A DNA stretch of 21,486 bases from a virus, in the IMG/VR virus record IMGVR_UViG_3300027844_000730, positions 1 through 21,486 of that record, one strand, 5' to 3'. Position 1 is the stretch's first letter. Each line of letters starts with the position of its first letter. Below the pieces are notes generated by a model. It was not told where the DNA came from. It searched no databases and worked only from the letters and a program-made list of their open reading frames with translations. Position numbers and translations under genes: made by a program. Of the stretch, positions 890 to 14,743 are shown piece by piece.

Positions 890-911
890 TTTCCACTTCC
901 TTTATAGTAGA

Positions 912-933
912 AGGGGGGAACTTAATCCCCCCT
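912..933 (-). terminator. G6/C6 hairpin after the capsid-decoration genes (weak or leaky terminator)
   Basis: Six G and six C face each other, extended by one A-T pair on each side (8-base stem) around a 6-base loop, 11 bases after the stop of the 140-residue gene. On the minus strand only TTCT follows rather than a U-run, so termination would be weak. It may instead protect the 3' end of the abundant capsid message from exonucleases, or lower expression of the genes beyond. Confidence 0.55.
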
Positions 934-944
934 AACTAGCTATA

Positions 945-1367
945 CTAAACTCTCATATGAAAGATCATCGTCGTATCAATAGCGTGAGTCCCGTGTGAGG
1001 ACTGCACATCTACTTCAACTACGTCACCTTTCTCTAGGTACAAATCAGTGGTAGCTGTACCGAAAGCACCGACAGCGGCTGCTGTTAGTGTAAGGATAGC
1101 GGTAGCTGCTCGTGCAGTTTCACTATTCTTAAGGTGTATTACCGTATCTGTAGCTCCAGATTTTGTTCCAACATAGTAATCGTACATATCCACGTACCCA
1201 GAAGCAGGAGCTGAAAATTTAGCAACGATACCATCTGTAGCGTCAGCTATTCCTTCATCTTCTGCTAAGTTTCCGGGAATATGAACAGTTATCGGTAGCC
1301 GGAAGTGCTTATCAACATTGGGCATAGTATGACCAAAGAACCTATAGGATTCTGCAGTGTTACCCAT
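945..1367 (-). CDS. Probable head decoration/stabilisation protein (140 aa)
   Basis: This 140-residue protein follows the major capsid gene and has no recognised family. It is Ala/Thr/Val/Asp-rich and looks like an all-beta sandwich (alternating hydrophobic strands such as GYVDMYDYYVGT, DTVIHLK, GDVVEVDVQ and TTMIFHMRV). It has no signal peptide, membrane segment or Cys. Position, size, beta content and the exceptional ribosome site suit a protein needed at about capsid copy number, such as a decoration or cement protein. Its first residues (FFGHTMPNVD) and last residues (IFHMRV) resemble those of the 156-residue protein downstream, so the two may be related. A head-tail connector is less likely given the predicted fold and the strong translation signal. 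The stop is TAG, just before a G6/C6 hairpin. Confidence 0.55.
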   Translation of the reverse strand: MGNTAESYRFFGHTMPNVDKHFRLPITVHIPGNLAEDEGIADATDGIVAKFSAPASGYVDMYDYYVGTKSGATDTVIHLKNSETARAATAILTLTAAAVGAFGTATTDLYLEKGDVVEVDVQSSHGTHAIDTTMIFHMRV

Positions 1368-1384: not shown

Positions 1385-2635
1385 TTAACTTAAGGTTGTA
1401 CTAAGACCGTAGATCCAGCCATGAGCTTTATCTGCGTTTCGTACTTCCATTGTGTACTCACCTGTAATCGTAGCGGTTTGTCGGTCACCGTCTACTGGGA
1501 CTGGTGTAGTAAAGAATGAACGGTCGTTGCCATTACCCTTAAGTGCACCAATTCCGATATACTCTCTTTGAAGTATAATCAAATCTGATGGTTGTACATA
1601 GCGATCAAGAACAATGTCTAGGTCACCAAACTCAGACTCGTAAGTACCTACAACTACACCGAGTGCACTCTCTTGTCGGTCAGTCCGTACATACGGGCTA
1701 GCGAAAGAAGAGAGAACTCGCTTCTGTGTTGCGTTTACTAGAATCGTGTCTGGCTTTCCACCATCATTCCAAATGTTTTGTAGTTCATCCATAAGAAGCT
1801 TCTCAGTCAGTTTGGCATCTGCGCCATTTGTACTGTTGGCAGTAGCAGAGGTTTTAATAAACCCATATAGACCACCCATTCTTCGCGCTGTAGCTGCCGT
1901 GTTAGCAGCGGGAACGTCGTTCCTGATACCGTAGTGAGCAGCTCTTTCAAGCTTAATTACGATTTCTTGGAACTTCTTAGCAAACTCTCTATCAAACTCA
2001 TTAGTAATACCAAACTTCTCAATTGACTCTGAAGTACCAGAAACTGATACCGCATCGTGAAAGATTTGAGTGTAATTACTATCTGTACCTAGCGCAGTTG
2101 AATTATAGACCGTAGAGAAGGTCGCACCATCTGCTTGCAAGTTACCAAGATTGTAGATAGTCTGACCAGTTACGTTAACACCTAGTCCGTGTGCTGCGTC
2201 TTCTGTTTCATCTGCTGCGCCAATAGTTAAAGTACCTGCAGATGTGCTCATTGCTGTCACAACACCGTAAGTACGGGCTACGTTACCTACGTTAATCAAG
2301 TCGCCTATCTTAAAGTAGTTAACTGAATCTGTTCCAACTGTTAGTGTTTCACCGGCGGAGCTGTCTCCTGCTGTTAGTAAAACTTGTGAAGGGATTAGCT
2401 CATCACTCTGCCATGTATGTGTCGTATTAAGACAAGGGTAGGCCAACGAATCAGCACCTGCGTTAGCAGATCCTGCTTCATCACCCATGCCCAGCATGGA
2501 AAGTAATGGAATATCCCTTGGGTCGATTGCATCAATGAATTCTGATACATTCTGTTTTTGGGTATAGGCGTTACTATCAAAGATAGACCTCATACCACCT
2601 GCGGCACCATCGGTGCCTGTAAATGCTGTTACCAT
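1385..2635 (-). CDS. Major capsid protein, SU10/DUF5309 type (HK97 fold)
   Basis: This is the main shell subunit, 416 residues, the usual family size. The N-terminal arm (1-40) precedes DIPLLSMLGMG. Residues about 85-165 form a Gly/Thr/Val-rich beta insertion with the family's 'GDLINVGN...VVTAMS' pattern. The strongest signature is NYTQIFHDAVSVSGTSESIE (187-206) followed by KFGITNEFDREFAKK, a long helix ending in IKLERAAHYG. RRMGGLYGFI (251-260), IWNDGGKPDTILVNATQKR (288-306) and the C-terminal GEYTMEVRNADKAHGWIYGLS (392-412) complete it. This order matches the SU10 major capsid (DUF5309) family, which adopts the HK97 fold. No cleavable N-terminal delta domain is obvious; a separate scaffold gene lies upstream. 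It is followed 17 bases later by the 140-residue gene, whose ribosome site touches this stop region. Confidence 0.92.
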   Translation of the reverse strand: MVTAFTGTDGAAGGMRSIFDSNAYTQKQNVSEFIDAIDPRDIPLLSMLGMGDEAGSANAGADSLAYPCLNTTHTWQSDELIPSQVLLTAGDSSAGETLTVGTDSVNYFKIGDLINVGNVARTYGVVTAMSTSAGTLTIGAADETEDAAHGLGVNVTGQTIYNLGNLQADGATFSTVYNSTALGTDSNYTQIFHDAVSVSGTSESIEKFGITNEFDREFAKKFQEIVIKLERAAHYGIRNDVPAANTAATARRMGGLYGFIKTSATANSTNGADAKLTEKLLMDELQNIWNDGGKPDTILVNATQKRVLSSFASPYVRTDRQESALGVVVGTYESEFGDLDIVLDRYVQPSDLIILQREYIGIGALKGNGNDRSFFTTPVPVDGDRQTATITGEYTMEVRNADKAHGWIYGLSTTLS

Positions 2636-2660: not shown

Positions 2661-3473
2661 TTATTGGAGTCCAAAGCTTCTCTTGTAAGAAATTATTTCC
2701 CCTTGAATTGCAATAGCCACTGCGAGTTTCCGTCCCTTTCGGGCCTGTTCATATCTTTCCTCCAGCTCAATTAGCCCTGCGTTGACAGCATTGCTGCCAT
2801 CGCGCCTACTCGTTGAGGCAGTTTCAGATCCACGCGATGTTCCCGGTGTACGGGATGCTTCTTCTTGTGCAGGTACTTCAGCATCTCTTGCAGGTTTAAC
2901 TGCGGCTAGTAACTCTTCTTTTAAAATGTTCATTTTATCATCAAGTTTAGATTCTTGTGCTTTTGCACTTAAATCTCCAGCCATTTTCCACACCTCTTGT
3001 GGTGTTGATGCAGATTGTAACGCACTAGGGTCGACATCAGGAAACGAGCTCACGGCTTGCTGAATAGTTTGTGTAAGAATTCGCTGACGGTTAGTCGACT
3101 GTTCCCTACGTTCTTGTTCAGCTTGCTGAGTTGCTTGTTCACGTTGTTGTCTTTCTTCAAGAACCAATTTGGCTCCATCTGCGTCGTCGGTTTCAATTAA
3201 CCGTTGTTCAAGAGTGTTGATAGCACCATCTTTGGTTTTTATCTGCTCATCGTAATAAGATTGCAATCCCGTGTACCACTCTTGGTATTTACCTTCAAGG
3301 TCACGTTCTTGTTCCCCCATCTTACGAGCCATATCACCAACTCTTGAATTTAAGTCTTTTTTATCCGACTCTAGTTCTACGATTTTGGCTTGCATGTCAT
3401 CTGATGACAGATTAGGGTTATTTTCGAGTGAGTCCGTAGACTGCTCTGTAATACCCTCTGTTTCGTTAGTCAT
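2661..3473 (-). CDS. Capsid scaffolding protein
   Basis: This 270-residue protein lies directly upstream of the major capsid gene, the usual place for a scaffold. It would template assembly of the empty procapsid and then leave or be degraded. The sequence has scaffold character: an acidic Asn/Ser/Glu-rich N-terminus (1-30), a Gln/Glu/Arg-rich coiled coil (about 27-135, with heptad-like runs such as LEERQQREQATQQAEQERRE), a Ser/Thr/Arg linker (about 205-230) and a basic amphipathic C-terminal helix (about 234-266, YEQARKGRKLAVAIAIQGEI). Basic C-terminal helices bind the coat in known scaffolds. Trp and Cys are few or absent. No protease domain is visible, so this is not a protease-scaffold fusion. 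It is the first gene after the candidate promoter, and the capsid gene follows 25 bases after its stop. Confidence 0.8.
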   Translation of the reverse strand: MTNETEGITEQSTDSLENNPNLSSDDMQAKIVELESDKKDLNSRVGDMARKMGEQERDLEGKYQEWYTGLQSYYDEQIKTKDGAINTLEQRLIETDDADGAKLVLEERQQREQATQQAEQERREQSTNRQRILTQTIQQAVSSFPDVDPSALQSASTPQEVWKMAGDLSAKAQESKLDDKMNILKEELLAAVKPARDAEVPAQEEASRTPGTSRGSETASTSRRDGSNAVNAGLIELEERYEQARKGRKLAVAIAIQGEIISYKRSFGLQ

Positions 3474-3479
3474 ACTAAT

Positions 3480-3484
3480 CCTCC
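3480..3484 (-). promoter_or_regulatory. Ribosome binding site of the scaffold gene
   Basis: GGAGG lies six bases before the ATG at 3473 and fixes that start for the scaffold. Confidence 0.8.
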
Positions 3485-3494
3485 ATTCATATTT

Positions 3495-3523
3495 ATTATA
3501 ACACTTTTGTCAAGGTTTGACAA
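3495..3523 (-). promoter_or_regulatory. Sigma70-like promoter for the scaffold-capsid genes
   Basis: On the minus strand TTGTCA (3523-3518, five of six matches to the -35 consensus) is followed by exactly 17 bases and then a perfect TATAAT (3500-3495). It fills the only sizeable gap between the giant gene and the scaffold. Transcription would begin about 3488, leaving a very short leader before the GGAGG ribosome site at 3484-3480. This would let the high-copy capsid genes be expressed independently of the 17 kb upstream. It is read from sequence only; the start site is not proven. Confidence 0.65.
3507..3523. repeat. 17-base palindrome overlapping the -35 box (operator-like)
   Basis: Two perfect 7-base arms, TTGTCAA and TTGACAA, flank a 3-base centre. 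The palindrome covers the -35 hexamer and half of the promoter spacer, the position where a repressor or activator dimer would act. There is no T-run after it on either strand, so it is not a good intrinsic terminator for the giant gene, although a short RNA hairpin is possible. Confidence 0.55.
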
Positions 3524-3526
3524 GTG

Positions 3527-6500
3527 CTAATCTCTACGTCTCGCAAACCTCGGAGTATCAGATGGATATGAGAATGTAGGAGAACGACCATACGTTTTAT
3601 AATTACTACCTCCCAACCCAAGCATTTCCTTAGTTTGATAGATTAATTTTAATGCCTGTACCCACTGTTCAAATGAGTAACTTGTGCCTACAGGGAACGT
3701 TCTAAACATAGCTCGTAACATACGTTCGTGATTACGAGTTAACTTCTGACTAGGATTTGTAAAGAAGTTAGTAAGTGCATCTTCAAACGAAGAATCATGG
3801 AACACCATATTGATGTGCTTAGATACCTCACTCCACTCAGGTAAGCCACCCACCCCAGAAGATGTTGGTGAGGCTTGCCTTCCACTTGCAGCAGGTTTAG
3901 CCCATCCGCGACTTGGCAGTGATACCTTAGTAGGTGTTTTTTCATTTCTCTTACGGCCAGTAGCTATTCCTACTATAGCTGAAAGAGCATCTATGTATTG
4001 AAAAGAAGCAATCTTAGCATCTTTATCGGCTACTCCACTGGGACCAGTTAAGCGCAGTAAGGTAGCTACTTCTCTGATGTTTGATAAGTCACCATACATT
4101 GTAGTAATCTGGGAGAACATACTCTCCCACATATCTTTAATGTCTTCAATATCTGATACACCGTTTCTTGCAAATGTTTCAAAGATGAAATCACCCGGCA
4201 TAAGGTTCTGTGTCTGTCTATAGTACCGTGATGCAATAGACGCTTTAATATTTTGAGCTTCTTTAGAAAGTCTAGGATGTTGTGCTAAGTCATACAGCTG
4301 ATACTTTCTACCAATGTTTCTAGCAACGTTACTTACTGAAGGGTACCCGCTTTGTGGCTTCCCTCTGATATCTTGTGGTATGCCTTGTACATCATCGAAG
4401 TCAGGCAAGTCCATACCTTCTTCAGCAGCAGCTACAGGGCCTAGGGGTGATCCAGATTTATCTCTCTCAGCATATAGTTGTTTTAATTGTTCTGCTTCTT
4501 CCCACTCACCTTTATCTTCTAACGCTTTTATTGTTAGAGCTTCTGCAATAATTCTATCTGCGTCCTTTTTAAAGTATTTAATATACAACTTATGTTCATC
4601 CAAAGTCGGATCAAGTCTATTAAAAATATCATAAAGTGATACAAACTTCATAAGTTCTTTTACTTCTAAAGCTTTCTTAAACTCGTCAAGAGATTCAGCA
4701 TCATAGATTCCAAGCTCTTGGTTTGGAGCTAAGAAGTGGTACTGTTCATCCCATGGAGCAGCTTGATTGAAATCAGTCTGCAAACGAGTCACTTTCTCAT
4801 CCCACGCACCATTCTTCATATCCTGAAATGAAATATTTTTTACATCACCAAGTCTTTCTGTTACATGTTTTACAAGGTCAGATTGTGAATACTCATTACG
4901 TTCCATCCAGACTTTGCCGTACTCATTAGTTTCTAACCAGTCTAGAACACCATCAACCGTAGGTGGTTTCCACATATCTATAGAAGTTTGTACTGCATTT
5001 GCTATAGAAGCAGCGTCCCCAAGTTCCCCTTCGTATATCTCACTAAGTTCTTTTTGCATCTCACGCATGACAGATTCAATAGCTTTATCTACTATTTGTG
5101 GCATACTTGCGGATGAAGCTTCTACTATTTTATATAAACGGAACTGCTCAGGATCTTTGGCTTTCATCGAAGTTTCCCACGCTTCTACCTCTTTAAGATA
5201 TTGCCCCCAGTTAACAATGTTAGTAGTTCTACCGTCTTTAGCTACCAAAGAGAACTCATCTTTTCTAGCAGTAAACTCTTCTGAGAATAATGTAGGAGCT
5301 GTCTTACGTTTATCTTCACGCATAAGCTCAACAAAGTTTTCAAGTTGCCACGCATTAAACATATCTACACTAATAAATCTTGGGTCATACCTAACTCCAG
5401 TTTTCTCAAACTTCCAGTCAGACATCTCTTGTAGAACCTGTTCAACATCTTCCCTTTTTATTTCACGGTATTCACCATCAGCGAACAAAGCATCCATCAC
5501 TTCTTCAACTTTGTGTACTCCTGCCATAGGGTCATCCGCAAACAGTGTCATGAACCACTCGTCTTTAATAAGCTTATCGCGTGTTAACTGCCTCCATAAC
5601 TGTGTAGAACCAAAAGAAGTTTTATCCATAATATGATTTGGATCAATAGGTACACCGCCTACCTCTTCAGGAGATAGTCCTACATTTATACCTGTTGTTT
5701 CAAATATACGTTTCTTCGCATCATTAAGTTGTGCATTCTTTCGGTTATTAACCGTCTCTAAGTCTCTAAAGAATGTCTCATCCATTGCAGGAGAGTCTTG
5801 TATTTCAAGTCCAAACTCGCTTAGATTTGGTCTATCTTCACTTCTCCCACTAGGTATTGAAGGACGCTCGCCGGGAATTGCAGCTATACCTGCATCGTAT
5901 TCATTGTTTATATCTTCCGCAATCTGATAGTACATACTTGAAGCTTGTGCACGATTAATTGAGTCGTGTTCAAGTTTTTTATTATTCAACCAATTTCTCG
6001 CCCATGGTGTTCCATCAAAGAACTCCGCATATTTCTTACTCTTTTGTGCTGCAGTTAGTGATCTACTCCGTACAATATTATAGTAGTTATTCATAATATC
6101 TGCGGCAAAGACTTTCTTACCAGTCGAAGGATCCATAGTATATTCACGTCCCGGTTTAAAAGCGAACCCAAGTAGTAGAGAAGAGGTATCTTGTATACCT
6201 CGTCTGCCACCAGCAGCCCTTTCCATATCATCATGTACTTGGTTTAGTACACTCATTTCTATTTTTTTACCATTAATAGGATCAGTAAGTTCTGCCTTTG
6301 GATCTAGCTTATGCCCAAATAACTTACTGCTAGTATCACCTATTGTATGTAGCAGAGGAATATTTATTACATTGTTCTGCTTTTGACGACTCCATGCATC
6401 CCACGCAAGTAATAGTAAGTATAGCTTTTCGTTTGTTTCAGGATTCGGGTCAGGCGATTGTACGTGTACTTCCCTACCATCTTCATCAATGGTAGTTGTA

Positions 6501-9500
6501 TAACTATTCATTATAGCTGCATGAGCTGCATTCATATAAGCGTAGTCAATTTCTCGAATATCCCTATTTGTTCGGATAAGTTGTGTTGCACTATGTTTTC
6601 CTGTAAGGGCTGCTGTTAAACTCATCGCCGTATCAAGAGGACGAGTCATTGAACCAATAGTTTTTTCAAGCTTATCAACATTGTCTCCATATTGACCAGT
6701 TATAGTCATAGCTGTTGTAATAGCTGGGTTAAGAGGCAACTTAAACATACCAGAGTAGACTTCACTCATCTTACCTAGTCGGCTAAAATCATCCATAGCA
6801 TTTAATGGATCTTCCCCAGCTCTAATTCTTCCTCTACCTGATGGGTAGTAGTCAAACATGTCATTCCAGAACATTATTGCATCAACATTAATTGTTGATC
6901 CCTCTGAGTATTTTTCAGCAGCAGATACCCATCCACCGGGATCTACACCGAGTGCCTTAGACATACCGAACATAGGCTGCAGTGCTTGTCCAATTGGTAT
7001 ATCACGTTGTGCCCACTTAGAAGTACCTAAATCTCTGTTTACATCTCGTATAGATTGTAGATATTGTGTAACTCTATTCAATAACTTTGGGTTATCCATG
7101 AGTGTCATAGCAGTCTTACCCGCTGTACGTGTCTGCCAAATATGCCATGGGCCAAGCCACCTAATAATATAGTCAAGGTTACTTGTATTACTGTAATCAT
7201 GTAACATCCAATCAGCCTGTGCCTGAGCTAATTTAGAAGAAGTTCTACGCATTTGGTTAGACTGAGTTTCTAACTCTTTCATTAGATCTCGTAGTTTCTG
7301 TACATCCTCTTGTCTTATAACTCTAGATGGGCCTTGTGTAATAGGTGTATACGGCTTTGTCCTATCCGCATATGCAGCAGCACGTTCACTTACATCACCT
7401 ACTGTGATACGTTGCTGTGCCCTAGCCTTTTCAAATACTTTCTGCTCTCTAATAAATAAGTCAAGAATTTCATCTCGTGATGTATTAGGTCGTCCATAAA
7501 TAGGCCAGCCTTTATCCCACTGATCCATCATATAGTTTGAAAGATTCTTAAGTGCACGTCTACGTACAGCTATCTCATAAGACAAATTATCCTTAGTTGC
7601 TTGTTTCTTAAACTTTGGAAGAAATCCTTTATAAACATCTGAATCAGCATCTTTCAACGCAGCAACTTCGTTAAGAACCTCTTCTAATTCTTTCTTAGCA
7701 AACTCAGGAGTCATTCTTGTGTTACTTTGTAGACCAGCTGAACCTGCCCACGATGCTTGAAAACCTGTCCAGTTTTCAGTACCACGAGATTGTTGTCGAT
7801 ACTTCCACCCAATTTTTTCATTATCTTTAGCTAGTCTATCTCTATACTGTGCAAGTTGCTTGATACCCGCTTCAATGTCCGCTTCACTAGCATCTTTTCT
7901 AACAAAGACAGCAAGACGATTCATAGCGAGTTCCCCATTTCGATTCCACGAATCATCTGTAATAAGGGGAACATAGCCTTCAGGGGCATTTTGCATAGGC
8001 ACCCGTCCATGGACACCTTGTGGTGGGAATCTATTTAGTACAGTCCCATCTGTTCTTACTTGGGGGTCCATACCAAAATTCATTGGAAGTACTGCTTCAG
8101 TACCTGAAAAGTCTAAATGTTTTCCGCCAACAGGATCCTGTAGTTTCCAGTTATATGCACGATCATTTTTATGTTTAGATATTGCGCGCTGCGCCGGACT
8201 AAAAGTACGCGAACGAGTGACATCTTCAGTTTGTCCTCTAGGAATAATCACACGCATAAGAGGTACACTAAAAGTTCTATTCTTTGCAGAAGAAGAAACA
8301 TTAAGTAAGCTTTCTAATTGTATTCTTTTTTCTGGTTTAAATGCATTTTCACGAACATCTTCAAAGTTATTACGGCGGGGCATCCCTCGATATTTAATGT
8401 CTTTACCAACCTCAAACTCTTGTGTTTTGTGCATTGGGTCAATTGCATCTAAATGGTCTTTGAACTCTAGAATTAGATCTTCATCTAATTCTGTATCTAA
8501 GTACAGACCACTCCAAGCACGAGCTTCTGCTTCTTTATATTTACTTAAGCTATCTATAAAAGCTCCGATACTATCCCTTGGAGGCTCACTTCCAGCTGAG
8601 AAAGGAACCAGAGTATCGAAGCCTTCTGTAGTTCCCCCCTTTACTAGATCAGCGTCAATTTGCTTTTGCCACTTTTGTAAGAAAGCTAACACAGGAGCTT
8701 TTTCTAATAAGATACGATCAAATGCATGTTGACCTTGATCATGCCAAACATCCAGACCTGCTTCGGCTGAGTGATTTAGCCCACCCTTACGCCGCAAGTC
8801 TTTTGTTTTTGGTTCTAGTCCAAGAGTGGTACGGACATCATTTAGGCGATTAATACTATCTTCTACAAAAGAATCCTTACCTTGTAATCTCTTATTTATC
8901 TCATCAAGTAATGTTTCTTTAGCTTTTCTAGCATTAGGATCTGAGTATACAGCTCTTGGTCGTGCGTCTCCTGCAGATAGGAACGTAGCTGTTAATTTAC
9001 GAACGTCTTCAATAACTAAGTTAGAATCTTCATTTAAGATCTTTGCAAGCTCATCAATTTGTTCTCTAGGACCTTTTTTAGAGAACATTCTTAATGTTAC
9101 GGCATCTGCTAGTATATCTAATTGCTCCCCAAGCTCATTTGCTTTTGCAATTAATTGCTTCTCACTAAGTGGAGGTCTCGTTGGCCGTGGTTCTATTTGT
9201 ACAAACTTACTCTTTTTTGCAGGTCTTTTTGCCCGCATAAACGTACCGTCATCAATACGTTTTTGTATAGCCATGGTTACATCCGCATTGCTAAAGGACA
9301 TTTTAGCATCTTTAGTGAAGTATTTATTACGGAGAAATTGTGCGTCTAGTAATTTTATATCAGACCCATTAAATAGAATATCCATAAGTGTTTCATCAAG
9401 AATCTTCCTTCTTATTTCAGGATCTGTAGACCAAGTACCTGTCTTACTTCTCATCTCCTTAAGACGTATATCGAGTCTTTCTTTTAATTGCTTAGTGGGT

Positions 9501-12500
9501 ATTGTACCAACGTTGACTCTTGATCCCTGACTTACGCTATCGGCTCGGAATTCTCCAAGAAGGGTTTGTGCACTACGCGATGCATCGTTTATTTCTTGCT
9601 GCTGCAAAGTAGGATTTAGATTATCAAGAAATTGCTCTCCTTCTAGAGGTTGACGTGCTTCATTAATTAAATCTTCTATAGCTTTAAACCCAAGCATCTC
9701 ATCGCCATTTTGTATCTGCTCAAACATACTTGCTTTTTGTGTCGGAGGAACAAAATTAAGCATTTCTTCTTCATCGACTTTACCTAACTCTCTTAACTTT
9801 TGTACAAAATCAAAGCGTTCTGTTTTATAAGTCTCTTTGTCTGTCATAATTGTAAGAAGGTAATTCTTCTGCTCTTCCATAGCTCGAAGAGGCTTAATGA
9901 GTTCAAGAATAACCTCTTGCGTAGCGTCATGAGCGGCTTTAACTGTTTCTTCACTAACAGGACCAGTCCCATGGTGCATATATCCTTTTATTGCATCGAA
10001 TAATCCTTCTTCCTCTTGAGTTCCCCCAAAAAGAGTAAGTATATTATTTAGTAAATCATCTTTGTTTTGCCACTGACCACCAATCAAAGAGCGATCTTCT
10101 CCAGCAGCTTTACGTGCTCTCTCTACTACAGTAGGATTGGTATTATATTTTACATCAATACCTGCTTCCATTGCAGCTTCTCGAAGTTCACGATAAATTT
10201 TATCGTACTCCTCTTTTAGAGCCTTTTTAACATTTTCTGCTGCTTTAAAATTTTCACCGACTTGTTTAAGAGGTTGAGTTCCATCTGCATCATATGCTCT
10301 ATGATCTGGTGTATGATACTCAATACCATCAAGTATCCTATTTATTAAATCATCTGCTTTTGCATCTTCTAATGCATTAGCATGGAAGCCTAATGAACGT
10401 ATATATGTACGTGCGCTCTGCCTCATCTCTAAGAACGCATCTCCTGTATCAGTAACACCTTCTACAATATTTATAACGTCATCTAAATTTAAAGTTCCCG
10501 GTGATTGTATGGCCTCTACCATTGTTTTCCATAAGGTACCATCACCTTCTTTTAAAATGTTTATTACTTCAGGATCACTAATCTGTCTAACTAGATTCTC
10601 AATCTGCGCTTCAGAGGATAATAATCTATACCATCTATAAGAAGCAGAATCAATAATTCGCATACGGTCTACAGATTCAGCATATCCAGAAAGCTGTCGT
10701 GCATATACAAAAGGTAGACCACCCCCTATACCGGGAATACCACCACCCTTAGCTCTAGTAAGGAATTTTTTCCAACCTTGTTTTTTTTGTACAGCTTCGT
10801 CTGCGCCACCTACAGCAATTCTCCATGCTTTTGCTTTACCTCTTACTGGAGCTAGTGCCGCTACATCTATATCAAGTGATGTTCTTGTATGTCCTTTAAC
10901 AGCAAGGTCTACATCTCCCCAAACACTTTGCCACTGTTTATCTCTTGCTCTAAATATATCTCCAACATTCATACCATCCATAAGCATTAGGGTCTTATTC
11001 GTGACGTAGTTTCTTACAGCAAATGCAGGTCGTTCTAGGAATAATTTAGATGTCCAACTATTGATAGCGTTTTGTAGTGCAAGTGCCTCACCTGCATTTT
11101 CATCTAAACCATACCGCTTGAGCATTACCTTTTGTGTCTCAACCTTTACTTCTTCATTAAGTCTCGCCCACCACTCAGCTGGTGTAAGTCCGTCAGGGTC
11201 TATATCTGATGGCTCTAGTCCATGTTTAAGAGAGGGAACATTATCTAAATTAATATCTTTAAGGATATCTAATGATTTAGCTGTCTCATTATGTAATTGA
11301 TTACTTATCTTTTTACTCTGTAAAAACATTAGATAAGCCATCGGATCGTCAGCCTTTCCAATTCTTTTTATATCTAAAAGTAAATCCTCAACTATACCAG
11401 CATGTGCACCTGATAAGGTTTCTTGAAATCGAGGTGCCCAAGCCCCAATCATAGAGCTGAACTCATTCATTGTACTGTAGATATTTGACACCATTCGGTC
11501 TCGTGTAGAACCCTCAGATGTTGCACTAAACGCTTTATTTCGTAGCCAACGTGTGCTATTAAATGCACCCCCTAGTACACCTGTACTTGGTTCTTGTATG
11601 ACGTTTTGTAAATCATGTCTACCAAATTTAGCTGTTGAACGAAACTCATCAATATTAAATGAAGCAAGTTTTTCAGATCTACCTAACGCTTTATTAATCT
11701 TAAAGAAGTCTTTAATACTACCAGCAGTGTCTATGTACTGATCAGCACGTAATACGGCTTGACCAATATCTTCATAACCTGTTAAAGGGATAGTTTGTAC
11801 TTTTCCTAAACCGAGTTCTATCTCATCAGCTAATTTTGTTAGGTTTGCTGCTTCATCACCAAACTCCGAAACCTTGGTTGGGAGGGAACCAGCATCAACA
11901 GTAAGTTTTCCTCGCACATTTTGTAATACTCGACCAGGGAAACTCTCAGAAACTTCAGTTAATTCACCTATGTCAGCTTGTCTTTGTTGTTCTCTTTTAG
12001 TAAGTCTTTTAGGCGCTTTAGGATCTACAATAATTGTTTGGTCAATTTTAGGTATCACGTTTTTATTTAGATCATGCAAAGATGCTTGTGGTGTGGGTAT
12101 GAACCCTAACTCATCTATTGCGTCTGCTTGTAGATTGTTCATAGCATGTGCTTTTTGACGTAACGCATCTATCATTGTTTGAGCTTGTTTTGGATTTGAT
12201 ATATTAAGTGTACCAGAAGCTTGTGTCACTTCTTGAATAGCACGAATAACATCATTATTAGCACCACTAACTCTTGCAAGACGAGCACTTTTCACAGCAC
12301 TCGTAACACCTATCTGGGCAACACTCGCGACTGCACCACCAAATACATCAAATAAATTAAATGTGCCGTAAGAGAAACCAGCTCTCATACGTTCACCCAT
12401 TCCCATTGACTCAGAAAGTGCCTCGTTAACAGTATAAATCCTGTTACCATTATCATCTTTTAAGTCATAAATCTTAATAAACTCATCGGCAGCACCAAGG

Positions 12501-14743
12501 TACCATCGACCATTCTCATCTGCTTCATAAGATAAGAGACCACCAATAGCATCTTCTAGTTCATCCTTCTCATCTTGCTCAAGACCTAGGTAAATTCTTG
12601 TAAGGTTTTTTCTAATAGAACCACCTTCTCTAGAATCTTCACGTCGCTTACTGTTACGAATAGTAGAGTATGCTGTTAGTGGACTAACATTCTTTAGCTC
12701 AGGAAACTCCTCTATAAATGAGTTATATGCCGGGTTTCTACTTTGAACTGCCTCAACAGAAAACTCAATTTGTTCCCAACTAGGCCCAATTGCTTCTCCA
12801 CCAGTCGAACCTTTTATGTTTGCCCTACCTGCTAAATTTCGGGTGACTTCGTATGTTCCCCCTATTCCAAGCCAAACAGCAGCCATTGTTTTCTGCTCAC
12901 CAAGTGTTAGACCACCCATAAGATTTGCCCAACCTTGAGCTGCTTTATTACCCTTATTTAGTTCAGCCCACTCGTTCCACTCTTCCGCTGTCTTCATCTC
13001 ATAACCAGTAATAAGACCAGCGAGACCGGAAAATAAACCAAGTTGCTCTCTTTGTCCTTGTTTATAGGGGTCATCTTCTAACGACCAGTCAGCAGATGCA
13101 TTTGGATCTAATAGTACTTTTTCTGCAATGCCATCTACGACATATTCATCTGCAGCAATAAGTCCACCCATAGCATCGCCACCAAGTCCAAACGCCTTAC
13201 TCAGTCCTTTTGAGTACCAGCTACGCCTATCTACTGTTTGCAATCCTTGACTTAATAAAAACTCATTAGAAATATTATCGGTAATTGGCGCACCATTAAG
13301 AGGTAACGCTTCATTTGGAGGCCAGTCATCACCAGCTCGTATACGTTCATCACGCACTCCACTTATCCACTTAAGAAGATTCTGTTCATCTTCTGCTTTT
13401 TCATCTGCAGCTTGTGCAGCTTTTGCTAATGGACCAGATAATCCTGTTTTAGCTCCTTGTAGAATAGCTGCTCTAAGATTATTCTGTTGTGAAGTTGTTA
13501 GTCCTAAATGTGTCCACATATCTTCTACTTTAGTACCTATACCACTCATACCTACGTTTATATCATTTGGGTTAAGGTCAGAAGGAGTTACCATAAGTGC
13601 ACGTAAGAATGTATCTGTATCTATTCCTCTGAGGGAACCTATACGCTTCATCGCTACTAGGTCAGTTGGTTCTACAGAAAGTAAGAAAAAGTTCTCTTCT
13701 TTAGAACCAAAGTTTTGTAAAGAACTTAAGACATGTGTACGAGCTTCAAGTAAGTCATTTTCTTCTATTACTGATTCGTTACCAAACTTACTGAATGCAC
13801 CCGCAATGAGGTTAAGTGTTTCAACACGGTAGAAAGGTGTCTTTGACAGATTTATATTCTCTTCTGTAATATATCTAGAAAAAGCCGAACGTAAGGCCTC
13901 TACAGTACCATCATTATTTAGCTGATCGTCAAGCACCTTAGCAAATCTAGGCTCTAGGTTTGATAGATCTTTTGGAATCTGAATAGGGTCATTTGTTGTT
14001 GTGACTGCAGCTTTATCTTTTAACAGTTTATACTGTCGGAAGAATTGCTGCATATCTTTACCAGCTTTAGGATCATTAATCGTGTAATCAAGCATGGCAG
14101 AGAATATTTCTGACTCACCCTCTTCACTACCCAATCGACTTCTAATAAAATAGTTTGCTTCTGGATGATCTATACGCTCTATCTCAGTTGTAACCATACC
14201 TAAGAACTGACTTTTTATATCTTCTTCTAGAAACTCATATGCATTTTTAGCAAGTTCTTGTGCAATATCTTTTCCTGTACGGTTTTTAGTTTCATTTGCC
14301 CATTTTCTTCGAGCAATACCATCAGTATATGCTTCTTTAGTACCTGTGATAATACCCGTAAGATTCTCACCTACCTCAAAATTAGATTCTTTTGTGTAGT
14401 AGTTAAAGTTAGAGTCAACTTGTTCAAGTGCCTTATCTACTTCGTCTTCGACAATCTCATCAACACCATACTTATCATACTTAAGTGAAGTTCCGTCTTC
14501 AGGAAGTTCATGACTTGGAATAAGTGTTTCTGTGGTTAAGTTGTTTGTAGTTTCTACGAGGTCTGGTTTAACACTCTCTGTAAGTAGGTTAGCCTCAGCT
14601 AATTCACTTTCTGCACCAAGTTCGGTTGTACTGCTAGTTGGACTAGTAGTACGTATTCGTTCCATCATTTTTCTAGATTGTTCTGGAGTAGAGTTACCAG
14701 AACCTAGTTCACCTAACCAATTGTCTATTTCTTCAATTGACAT
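3527..14743 (-). CDS. Giant probable virion-delivered (polyvalent-type) protein, 3738 aa, with a candidate ADP-ribosyltransferase domain
   Basis: This uninterrupted 3738-codon frame ends in TAG and has no recognised overall family. Seen from the N-terminus: an acidic, Thr/Ser-rich leader (1-100); a helical region; Gly/Ala-rich hydrophobic segments between about 515 and 825 (such as GGDAMGGLIAADEY and FDVFGGAVASVAQIGV); a block WTSKLFLERPAFAVRNYVTN (from 1230) and a Gly-rich stretch plus R/Y-rich helix (1322-1372); long charged helices; a candidate R-S-E ADP-ribosyltransferase (about 2105-2230); a block YIIRWLGPWHIWQ...DNPKLLNRV (2522-2563); more helices; and a basic, Tyr-rich tail (ARRRD). 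The start ATG lies 18 bases after the upstream stop with only a weak ribosome site, suggesting coupling. Size and position between portal and scaffold fit the giant polyvalent proteins that phages package and inject. It is as large as the N4 virion RNA polymerase, but I saw no polymerase motifs. The gene call is near certain; the function is inference. Confidence 0.9.
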   Translation of the reverse strand: MSIEEIDNWLGELGSGNSTPEQSRKMMERIRTTSPTSSTTELGAESELAEANLLTESVKPDLVETTNNLTTETLIPSHELPEDGTSLKYDKYGVDEIVEDEVDKALEQVDSNFNYYTKESNFEVGENLTGIITGTKEAYTDGIARRKWANETKNRTGKDIAQELAKNAYEFLEEDIKSQFLGMVTTEIERIDHPEANYFIRSRLGSEEGESEIFSAMLDYTINDPKAGKDMQQFFRQYKLLKDKAAVTTTNDPIQIPKDLSNLEPRFAKVLDDQLNNDGTVEALRSAFSRYITEENINLSKTPFYRVETLNLIAGAFSKFGNESVIEENDLLEARTHVLSSLQNFGSKEENFFLLSVEPTDLVAMKRIGSLRGIDTDTFLRALMVTPSDLNPNDINVGMSGIGTKVEDMWTHLGLTTSQQNNLRAAILQGAKTGLSGPLAKAAQAADEKAEDEQNLLKWISGVRDERIRAGDDWPPNEALPLNGAPITDNISNEFLLSQGLQTVDRRSWYSKGLSKAFGLGGDAMGGLIAADEYVVDGIAEKVLLDPNASADWSLEDDPYKQGQREQLGLFSGLAGLITGYEMKTAEEWNEWAELNKGNKAAQGWANLMGGLTLGEQKTMAAVWLGIGGTYEVTRNLAGRANIKGSTGGEAIGPSWEQIEFSVEAVQSRNPAYNSFIEEFPELKNVSPLTAYSTIRNSKRREDSREGGSIRKNLTRIYLGLEQDEKDELEDAIGGLLSYEADENGRWYLGAADEFIKIYDLKDDNGNRIYTVNEALSESMGMGERMRAGFSYGTFNLFDVFGGAVASVAQIGVTSAVKSARLARVSGANNDVIRAIQEVTQASGTLNISNPKQAQTMIDALRQKAHAMNNLQADAIDELGFIPTPQASLHDLNKNVIPKIDQTIIVDPKAPKRLTKREQQRQADIGELTEVSESFPGRVLQNVRGKLTVDAGSLPTKVSEFGDEAANLTKLADEIELGLGKVQTIPLTGYEDIGQAVLRADQYIDTAGSIKDFFKINKALGRSEKLASFNIDEFRSTAKFGRHDLQNVIQEPSTGVLGGAFNSTRWLRNKAFSATSEGSTRDRMVSNIYSTMNEFSSMIGAWAPRFQETLSGAHAGIVEDLLLDIKRIGKADDPMAYLMFLQSKKISNQLHNETAKSLDILKDINLDNVPSLKHGLEPSDIDPDGLTPAEWWARLNEEVKVETQKVMLKRYGLDENAGEALALQNAINSWTSKLFLERPAFAVRNYVTNKTLMLMDGMNVGDIFRARDKQWQSVWGDVDLAVKGHTRTSLDIDVAALAPVRGKAKAWRIAVGGADEAVQKKQGWKKFLTRAKGGGIPGIGGGLPFVYARQLSGYAESVDRMRIIDSASYRWYRLLSSEAQIENLVRQISDPEVINILKEGDGTLWKTMVEAIQSPGTLNLDDVINIVEGVTDTGDAFLEMRQSARTYIRSLGFHANALEDAKADDLINRILDGIEYHTPDHRAYDADGTQPLKQVGENFKAAENVKKALKEEYDKIYRELREAAMEAGIDVKYNTNPTVVERARKAAGEDRSLIGGQWQNKDDLLNNILTLFGGTQEEEGLFDAIKGYMHHGTGPVSEETVKAAHDATQEVILELIKPLRAMEEQKNYLLTIMTDKETYKTERFDFVQKLRELGKVDEEEMLNFVPPTQKASMFEQIQNGDEMLGFKAIEDLINEARQPLEGEQFLDNLNPTLQQQEINDASRSAQTLLGEFRADSVSQGSRVNVGTIPTKQLKERLDIRLKEMRSKTGTWSTDPEIRRKILDETLMDILFNGSDIKLLDAQFLRNKYFTKDAKMSFSNADVTMAIQKRIDDGTFMRAKRPAKKSKFVQIEPRPTRPPLSEKQLIAKANELGEQLDILADAVTLRMFSKKGPREQIDELAKILNEDSNLVIEDVRKLTATFLSAGDARPRAVYSDPNARKAKETLLDEINKRLQGKDSFVEDSINRLNDVRTTLGLEPKTKDLRRKGGLNHSAEAGLDVWHDQGQHAFDRILLEKAPVLAFLQKWQKQIDADLVKGGTTEGFDTLVPFSAGSEPPRDSIGAFIDSLSKYKEAEARAWSGLYLDTELDEDLILEFKDHLDAIDPMHKTQEFEVGKDIKYRGMPRRNNFEDVRENAFKPEKRIQLESLLNVSSSAKNRTFSVPLMRVIIPRGQTEDVTRSRTFSPAQRAISKHKNDRAYNWKLQDPVGGKHLDFSGTEAVLPMNFGMDPQVRTDGTVLNRFPPQGVHGRVPMQNAPEGYVPLITDDSWNRNGELAMNRLAVFVRKDASEADIEAGIKQLAQYRDRLAKDNEKIGWKYRQQSRGTENWTGFQASWAGSAGLQSNTRMTPEFAKKELEEVLNEVAALKDADSDVYKGFLPKFKKQATKDNLSYEIAVRRRALKNLSNYMMDQWDKGWPIYGRPNTSRDEILDLFIREQKVFEKARAQQRITVGDVSERAAAYADRTKPYTPITQGPSRVIRQEDVQKLRDLMKELETQSNQMRRTSSKLAQAQADWMLHDYSNTSNLDYIIRWLGPWHIWQTRTAGKTAMTLMDNPKLLNRVTQYLQSIRDVNRDLGTSKWAQRDIPIGQALQPMFGMSKALGVDPGGWVSAAEKYSEGSTINVDAIMFWNDMFDYYPSGRGRIRAGEDPLNAMDDFSRLGKMSEVYSGMFKLPLNPAITTAMTITGQYGDNVDKLEKTIGSMTRPLDTAMSLTAALTGKHSATQLIRTNRDIREIDYAYMNAAHAAIMNSYTTTIDEDGREVHVQSPDPNPETNEKLYLLLLAWDAWSRQKQNNVINIPLLHTIGDTSSKLFGHKLDPKAELTDPINGKKIEMSVLNQVHDDMERAAGGRRGIQDTSSLLLGFAFKPGREYTMDPSTGKKVFAADIMNNYYNIVRSRSLTAAQKSKKYAEFFDGTPWARNWLNNKKLEHDSINRAQASSMYYQIAEDINNEYDAGIAAIPGERPSIPSGRSEDRPNLSEFGLEIQDSPAMDETFFRDLETVNNRKNAQLNDAKKRIFETTGINVGLSPEEVGGVPIDPNHIMDKTSFGSTQLWRQLTRDKLIKDEWFMTLFADDPMAGVHKVEEVMDALFADGEYREIKREDVEQVLQEMSDWKFEKTGVRYDPRFISVDMFNAWQLENFVELMREDKRKTAPTLFSEEFTARKDEFSLVAKDGRTTNIVNWGQYLKEVEAWETSMKAKDPEQFRLYKIVEASSASMPQIVDKAIESVMREMQKELSEIYEGELGDAASIANAVQTSIDMWKPPTVDGVLDWLETNEYGKVWMERNEYSQSDLVKHVTERLGDVKNISFQDMKNGAWDEKVTRLQTDFNQAAPWDEQYHFLAPNQELGIYDAESLDEFKKALEVKELMKFVSLYDIFNRLDPTLDEHKLYIKYFKKDADRIIAEALTIKALEDKGEWEEAEQLKQLYAERDKSGSPLGPVAAAEEGMDLPDFDDVQGIPQDIRGKPQSGYPSVSNVARNIGRKYQLYDLAQHPRLSKEAQNIKASIASRYYRQTQNLMPGDFIFETFARNGVSDIEDIKDMWESMFSQITTMYGDLSNIREVATLLRLTGPSGVADKDAKIASFQYIDALSAIVGIATGRKRNEKTPTKVSLPSRGWAKPAASGRQASPTSSGVGGLPEWSEVSKHINMVFHDSSFEDALTNFFTNPSQKLTRNHERMLRAMFRTFPVGTSYSFEQWVQALKLIYQTKEMLGLGGSNYKTYGRSPTFSYPSDTPRFARRRD
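7055..7178 (-). other. Conserved-looking 'WLGPWHIWQ...DNPKLLNR' block of the giant protein
   Basis: Residues 2522-2563 hold an aromatic-rich helix (YIIRWLGPWHIWQTRTAGK) followed by MDNPKLLNRVTQYL. The aromatic-Pro-aromatic then Asn-Pro layout resembles large polyvalent-protein-associated (LPD) domains of other giant phage proteins. About 1,150 residues, including the candidate ADP-ribosyltransferase, separate it from the RPAFAVRN block. The call is by resemblance only. Confidence 0.3.
8054..8431 (-). other. Candidate ADP-ribosyltransferase (R-S-E class) domain inside the giant protein
   Basis: Residues about 2105-2230 of the giant protein show the three strands that define arginine-type ADP-ribosyltransferases, in order. 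The first is KYRGM, with Arg2119 as the candidate NAD-binding arginine. The second is LLNVSSSAKNRTF, with Ser2150-Ser2152 in the STS position. The third is SGTEAVLPMNF, with Glu2216 in the place of the second Glu of ExE, followed by the usual hydrophobic-Leu-Pro run. Between the last two lies PLMRVIIPRGQ, resembling the family's 'I-x-V-P-x-G' strand. The first Glu of ExE is Gly2214 here, which is atypical. Such domains are known in injected phage effectors (T4 Alt) and in polyvalent proteins. The motif reading was done by eye. Confidence 0.5.
10929..11056 (-). other. Conserved-looking 'RPAFAVRN' block of the giant protein
   Basis: Residues 1230-1271 contain WTSKLFLERPAFAVRNYVTN and then a hydrophobic MDG turn. 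This resembles the pattern seen in many giant phage proteins, where a helical segment carries a Pro-hydrophobic-Arg-Asn signature. About 50 residues later comes a Gly-rich stretch (GGGIPGIGGGLP) and a helix rich in Arg and Tyr. I read it as the start of a polyvalent-protein core domain. The family assignment is tentative. Confidence 0.35.

What the first reader, a model, noticed from the sequence alone, without database searches (positions are those of the whole stretch)
3495..3526. Near-consensus promoter overlapped by a perfect 7+3+7 palindrome
TTGTCA-17-TATAAT, with TTGTCAA/TTGACAA arms over the -35, sits immediately before the scaffold-capsid genes. It would give the structural genes a separate, controllable start, probably using host sigma70. 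Such a strong host-type promoter in the late region must be kept silent early, and the palindrome offers a way to do so.
Basis: seen in the sequence. Interest (0 to 1): 0.6.

Follow-up and report, generated by a model that had tools for sequence, protein, structure and literature searches.

The report
Capsid-operon promoter in an uncultured phage
Just before the genes for the head scaffold and coat protein of an uncultured phage (probably marine) sits a conserved, near-perfect bacterial-type promoter, which most likely boosts capsid production; the palindrome over it is real and mostly conserved, but there is no evidence that it is an off-switch, and the arrangement is ordinary.

Summary
The sequence is as described, on the minus strand: TTGTCA (3523-3518), 17-bp spacer, TATAAT (3500-3495), with TTGTCAA/ACC/TTGACAA at 3523-3507. 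The promoter is far beyond chance: 0.01 comparable sites expected in shuffles. The palindrome alone is not: four 7+3+7 repeats in the window, 1.4 expected.

Fifteen related viral contigs (nine lineages besides the window) keep the site in the same gap between a giant (about 3,700-aa) gene and the scaffold gene. TGnTATAAT is invariant while its free n varies (T/A/C), as expected of a working sigma-70 extended -10. The right arm never varies. The left arm, which is the -35, is broken without compensation in two lineages.

The dyad is at no other promoter of two ~60-kb relatives, including the equally strong lead promoter of the late operon. Neither genome shows a T7-type polymerase or sigma factor. 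Downstream, scaffold, capsid and a 140-aa gene end at a conserved GC hairpin.

Best reading: a host-sigma-70 internal booster for a scaffold-capsid cassette, working like T7 phi10. The off-switch is unproven. Ordinary in kind, in an uncharacterised clade.

The parts
3518..3523 (-). -35 hexamer TTGTCA (also most of the left arm of the palindrome)
   Evidence: becomes TTGCAA in L002 and TTGCAT in L005/L006
3495..3503 (-). extended -10 TGTTATAAT
   Evidence: TG and TATAAT invariant in 10 lineages, n varies
3507..3523 (.). palindrome TTGTCAA-ACC-TTGACAA (minus strand); right arm 3507-3513 invariant in relatives
3499..3529 (-). extended imperfect inverted repeat, 13 pairs with a 2-nt bulge when folded as RNA
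3487..3489 (-). predicted transcription start
   Evidence: inference from the position of the -10; no RNA data
3471..3488 (-). short leader with Shine-Dalgarno GGAGG and start codon of the scaffold gene
   Evidence: 18 of 18 columns from -15 to the ATG invariant
2661..3473 (-). scaffold-like protein gene, 270 aa (named by position and composition; no family match above cut-off)
1385..2635 (-). major capsid protein, SU10 type, 416 aa
   Evidence: PF17236, E=1.5e-71; PHROG 1328 major head protein
945..1367 (-). 140-aa protein, third gene of the cassette, no family match
903..947 (-). conserved GC hairpin without U-tract, possible 3' boundary of the cassette

Best explanation
The site is an internal promoter of the late operon read by the host's housekeeping sigma (sigma70/SigA type). 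An extended -10 (TGnTATAAT), helped by a -35 that is nearly consensus in most lineages, starts a short-leader mRNA about 15 nt before the start codon of the scaffold gene. It gives scaffold, major capsid protein and a 140-aa protein extra mRNA over what reads through from the late operon's lead promoter more than 18 kb upstream; a conserved GC hairpin after the third gene would end or stabilise that mRNA. Shown: sequence, location, conservation, constraint pattern, other sigma70-type promoters in the relatives, no detected T7-type RNA polymerase or sigma factor. Inferred: that it is transcribed, its strength and timing, the role of the hairpin. The palindrome's right arm (TTGACAA, about -25 to -19) is more constrained than a spacer needs to be; an accessory protein may bind it, but the sign of any such control is unknown.
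For: Best promoter match in the scanned window, 0.01 expected by chance. Sits in a 53-bp gap directly before a strong Shine-Dalgarno. Present in all 15 related loci that cover the gap; a pattern that does not include the promoter found only contigs that have it. TG and TATAATA invariant in 10 lineages while n changes. Positions -40 to -21 from the ATG: 18 of 20 columns invariant against 40 of 65 fourfold sites, binomial p=0.005. Relatives of ~60 kb carry further near-consensus sigma70 promoters with TGn. No T7-type RNAP with T7 as positive control, no sigma70 region 2 with 10 of 14 control genomes positive. Conserved hairpin after the 140-aa gene in 18 loci.
Against: No transcript data and no known host. 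The -35 is weak (3-4 of 6) in L002 and L005/L006. Background conservation is high (62% of fourfold sites invariant), so the constraint is moderate statistically. Four distant relatives with scaffold-capsid order have no such promoter. The hairpin lacks a U-tract, so termination is uncertain.
Confidence: 0.8

Rival explanations
1. One reading: the promoter is real and the TTGTCAA/TTGACAA dyad is an operator where a phage (or host, or satellite) dimeric regulator covers the -35 and spacer, keeping the capsid genes silent until late.
For: Perfect dyad in 8 of 10 lineages; centred near -27, where a bound protein would block RNA polymerase; right arm 7/7 columns invariant, p=0.03; a conserved 80-aa protein with a ribbon-helix-helix-like sequence pattern lies at the late-operon divergent promoter of the relatives.
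Against: Left arm broken without compensation in 2 lineages. The exact dyad is unique per genome and absent at the lead late promoter. Dyads of this size are common by chance. The candidate regulator has no family match and its predicted structure is low-confidence (pLDDT 54).
Confidence: 0.25
2. The inverted repeat acts in RNA: in read-through mRNA from upstream it forms a hairpin just behind the giant gene's stop codon that protects, pauses or processes the transcript, and the promoter-like bases are secondary.
For: 13-bp stem, -11.1 kcal/mol, z=-4.5 on the 34-nt stretch; some outer pairs kept through G-U changes.
Against: L006 does not form the stem; no pair changes on both sides; the stem does not explain the invariant TGnTATAAT or its free n; no U-tract.
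Confidence: 0.08
3. Chance: an AT-rich gap that looks like a promoter and is kept only by recent common descent.
For: Background invariance in the clade is high (40 of 65 fourfold sites); whole-gap invariance only slightly exceeds it, p=0.046.
Against: 0.01 expected per window; variation falls exactly on the positions that sigma70 does not read (n of TGn, spacer middle, between -10 and Shine-Dalgarno).
Confidence: 0.07

Closest known systems
T7 phi10 promoter - gene 10 (capsid) - Tphi terminator cassette
   Same: A dedicated promoter right before a head gene inside the late region, and a 3' transcription signal after it (T7 annotation).
   Different: phi10 is read by T7's own RNA polymerase and lies after the scaffold gene; here the promoter is host sigma70-type and lies before the scaffold gene. 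The closing hairpin here has no U-tract.
Host sigma70 extended -10 promoters (TGnTATAAT) as used by many phages
   Same: Hexamers, 17-bp spacing, TG motif, free n.
   Different: The spacer holds an invariant TTGACAA that sigma70 does not need.
Repressor-operator promoters such as lambda PR/OR (known from general knowledge, not tested here)
   Same: Inverted repeat overlapping -35 and spacer.
   Different: No repressor identified; arms not equally conserved; one site only.
Scaffold-capsid gene pair of LUZ24-like phages (Pseudomonas phage tf)
   Same: Portal - small gene - scaffold - capsid order with an annotated terminator after the capsid gene; related capsid protein.
   Different: No promoter-like site before the scaffold gene in the stretch scanned; no giant gene between portal and scaffold.

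Membership tests
sigma70 (housekeeping) promoter | -35 and -10 hexamers near TTGACA/TATAAT, spacer 16-18 | tested here: met
   11/12, spacer 17; -10 invariant in relatives; -35 only 3-4/6 in 2 lineages
sigma70 (housekeeping) promoter | extended -10 TGn with unconstrained n | tested here: met
   n = T, A or C, TG invariant
sigma70 (housekeeping) promoter | transcript start 6-8 nt after the -10 | not testable with these tools
   no RNA data, no cultured host
Phage-RNAP promoter (T7 phi10 type) | genome encodes a single-subunit RNA polymerase | tested here: not met
   PF00940 absent in two ~60-kb relatives, found in T7; completeness of the relatives is unknown
Repressor operator | both arms conserved or co-varying | tested here: not met
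   left arm 3/7 columns vary, right arm 0/7, no compensation; left-right difference itself p=0.19
Repressor operator | a cognate DNA-binding protein | tested here: inconclusive
   no clear regulator among the proteins scanned; 80-aa candidate unresolved
Repressor operator | same site at other controlled promoters | tested here: not met
   exact palindrome once per genome, none at the other promoters
Intrinsic terminator (903-947) | GC hairpin followed by U-tract | tested here: not met
   hairpin present and conserved, but tail TTCTACTATA; not called by the scan

The most novel reading that the evidence does not exclude
A clade-specific phage, host or satellite protein reads the TTGWCAA repeats in the promoter spacer and tunes capsid synthesis independently of the rest of the late operon, so that capsid dosage has its own control point in an uncultured phage group.
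Probability: 0.2. Interest if true: 0.45.

Novelty: new member of a known kind. Interest (0 to 1): 0.25.

Why it matters
It shows a conserved scaffold-capsid expression cassette (promoter, three genes, closing hairpin) in a phage clade without isolates, and suggests that the clade relies on a host sigma70-type polymerase, which narrows the possible hosts to bacteria with TTGACA/TATAAT promoters. If the invariant TTGACAA in the spacer is a protein site, it would be a case of separate control of capsid dosage.

Tried and rejected
Searched for the dyad across the relatives' records, up to 60 kb: the exact form occurs once per genome. Looked for a composite motif TTGACAAnAGTGnTATAATA in all viral contigs: 13 contigs outside the clade in about 8 families (one a T4-like cyanophage by gene content); a control with one more spacer base gave 9 hits, so I treat it as background, though the form AACACTTGACAATAGTGTTATAATA in L091 and L099 is strikingly similar. 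One exact dyad+AGTG hit outside the clade (L111) is at the end of an unrelated coding gene. No relative of the capsid protein was found in bacterial genomes, so no host. An RNA-only explanation was tested by folding and pair counts and is weak. Rfam found nothing in the window. Four distant capsid relatives have no such promoter. The predicted structure of the 80-aa candidate regulator is uninformative. The papers found did not describe this case.

Full report
WHAT IS THERE. The window is a 21,486-base virus record whose genes run on the minus strand: terminase, a 653-aa protein (portal by position), an 83-aa ORF, a 1007-aa protein, a 3738-aa giant, a 270-aa scaffold-like protein, an SU10-type major capsid protein (PF17236, 1.5e-71) and small ORFs. 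The finding lies in the 53-bp gap between giant and scaffold genes. On the minus strand it reads CACTTGTCAAACCTTGACAAAAGTGTTATAATAAATATGAATGGAGGATTAGTATG. TTGTCA-17-TATAAT is right, and TGTTATAAT is also an extended -10. It is the best promoter match in the scanned 20 kb. Sites of that quality are expected 0.01 times per window by chance, whereas perfect 7+3+7 inverted repeats are expected 1.4 times and found four times. So the promoter is the significant part and the palindrome by itself is not.

CONSERVATION. Twenty viral contigs encode relatives of the capsid protein. Fifteen of them, in nine lineages besides the window, cover the gap. A pattern that covers only the ribosome-binding site and first codons found 15 stretches, all in contigs of this same set and thus all with the promoter. 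Column by column, TG and TATAATA never change while the n of TGn is T, A or C; this is the signature of selection on an extended -10. The right arm TTGACAA never changes. The left arm, which contains the -35, becomes TTGCAAA in L002 and TTGCATA in L005/L006. No change is compensated on the other side. Background conservation is high (40 of 65 fourfold sites in the scaffold gene are invariant), so the statistical weight is moderate: p=0.005 for the 20 columns from the right arm to the -10, p=0.03 for the right arm alone, p=0.19 for left versus right arm.

CONTEXT IN THE GENOME. In G001 (60.8 kb) the replication-type genes (family A DNA polymerase, class II ribonucleotide reductase, helicase) are on one strand and the late block on the other. 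Near-consensus sigma70 sites with TGn lie at G001 +51744, -50456, +12267 and -19980, and at matching places in G002. The site at -50456 is the apparent lead promoter of the late block, 504 bp before the terminase gene and over 18 kb before the site studied here. None of them carries the dyad; the exact palindrome occurs once per genome. No T7-type polymerase (the T7 control was positive) and no sigma70 region 2 were found. Host sigma70 use is therefore the likely rule in this clade, and the premise that a host-type late promoter must be specially silenced is weak.

A CASSETTE. After the 140-aa gene behind the capsid gene there is a strongly conserved hairpin, TATAGCTAGTTAGGGGGGATTAAGTTCCCCCCTTCTACTATA, -22.5 to -24.4 kcal/mol in 18 loci. 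It has no U-tract, so it is not a textbook terminator. With the promoter it brackets the scaffold, capsid and 140-aa genes. T7 places phi10 before and Tphi after its capsid gene, but with its own polymerase. Pseudomonas phage tf has an annotated terminator after its capsid gene but no promoter-like site before its scaffold gene, and neither do three other distant relatives at a useful score.

MECHANISM. Most likely, host RNA polymerase starts at about 3487-3489, about 15 nt before the scaffold start codon, and adds capsid mRNA to read-through from upstream (0.8). A repressor on the dyad remains possible (0.25) but predicts arms that are kept or co-vary, and a regulator; the first was tested and not met, the second not found. 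The invariance of TTGACAA inside the spacer is the one feature that plain sigma70 recognition does not explain. These probabilities overlap, because an operator would sit on the same promoter.

RNA LEVEL. In read-through RNA the dyad folds as a 13-bp stem (-11.1 kcal/mol), but L006 does not form it and no pair shows a change on both sides, so an RNA role is less likely.

VERDICT. Observation confirmed; promoter interpretation supported; silencing interpretation not supported. An ordinary kind of element in an uncharacterised phage clade.

Noticed in passing
window 903-947, minus strand: GC-rich hairpin without U-tract after the 140-aa gene, near-identical in 18 related loci; possible transcript 3' end or stability element of the capsid cassette.
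   Followed up: partly
window 3527-14743, minus strand: Single 3738-aa ORF (3758 aa in G001) between the 1007-aa gene and the scaffold gene, with no Pfam or PHROGs match; about half of the window.
   Followed up: no
L043 12225-12330 (+ strand; G001): Intergenic stretch with a promoter-like TTGCCA-17-TGTTATAAT inside a very stable hairpin (-38.9 kcal/mol, z=-5.1), GGTTGCCAAATGTCTGC...GTAGACATATTGGTGACC, apparently with compensating changes in G003/G004 (by eye); no Rfam match; possible structured RNA or replication origin.
   Followed up: partly
L045 10473-10715 (+ strand; G001): 80-aa protein, 86% identical between distant relatives, ribbon-helix-helix-like pattern by eye, divergent from the late operon with overlapping back-to-back promoters; candidate regulator, fold prediction inconclusive.
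   Followed up: partly
L090, L091, L096, L099, L101: Other viral contigs (L099 looks like a T4-like cyanophage) carry AACACTTGACAAnAGTGTTATAATA before a gene: the same element as here minus one 10-bp repeat unit; could be coincidence.
   Followed up: partly
L043 1043-1393, L043 4665-5489, L045 16677-17471 (+ strand; G001): ArdA-like antirestriction protein, an N6/N4 DNA methylase and a C5 DNA methylase: several counter-restriction candidates in one phage.
   Followed up: no
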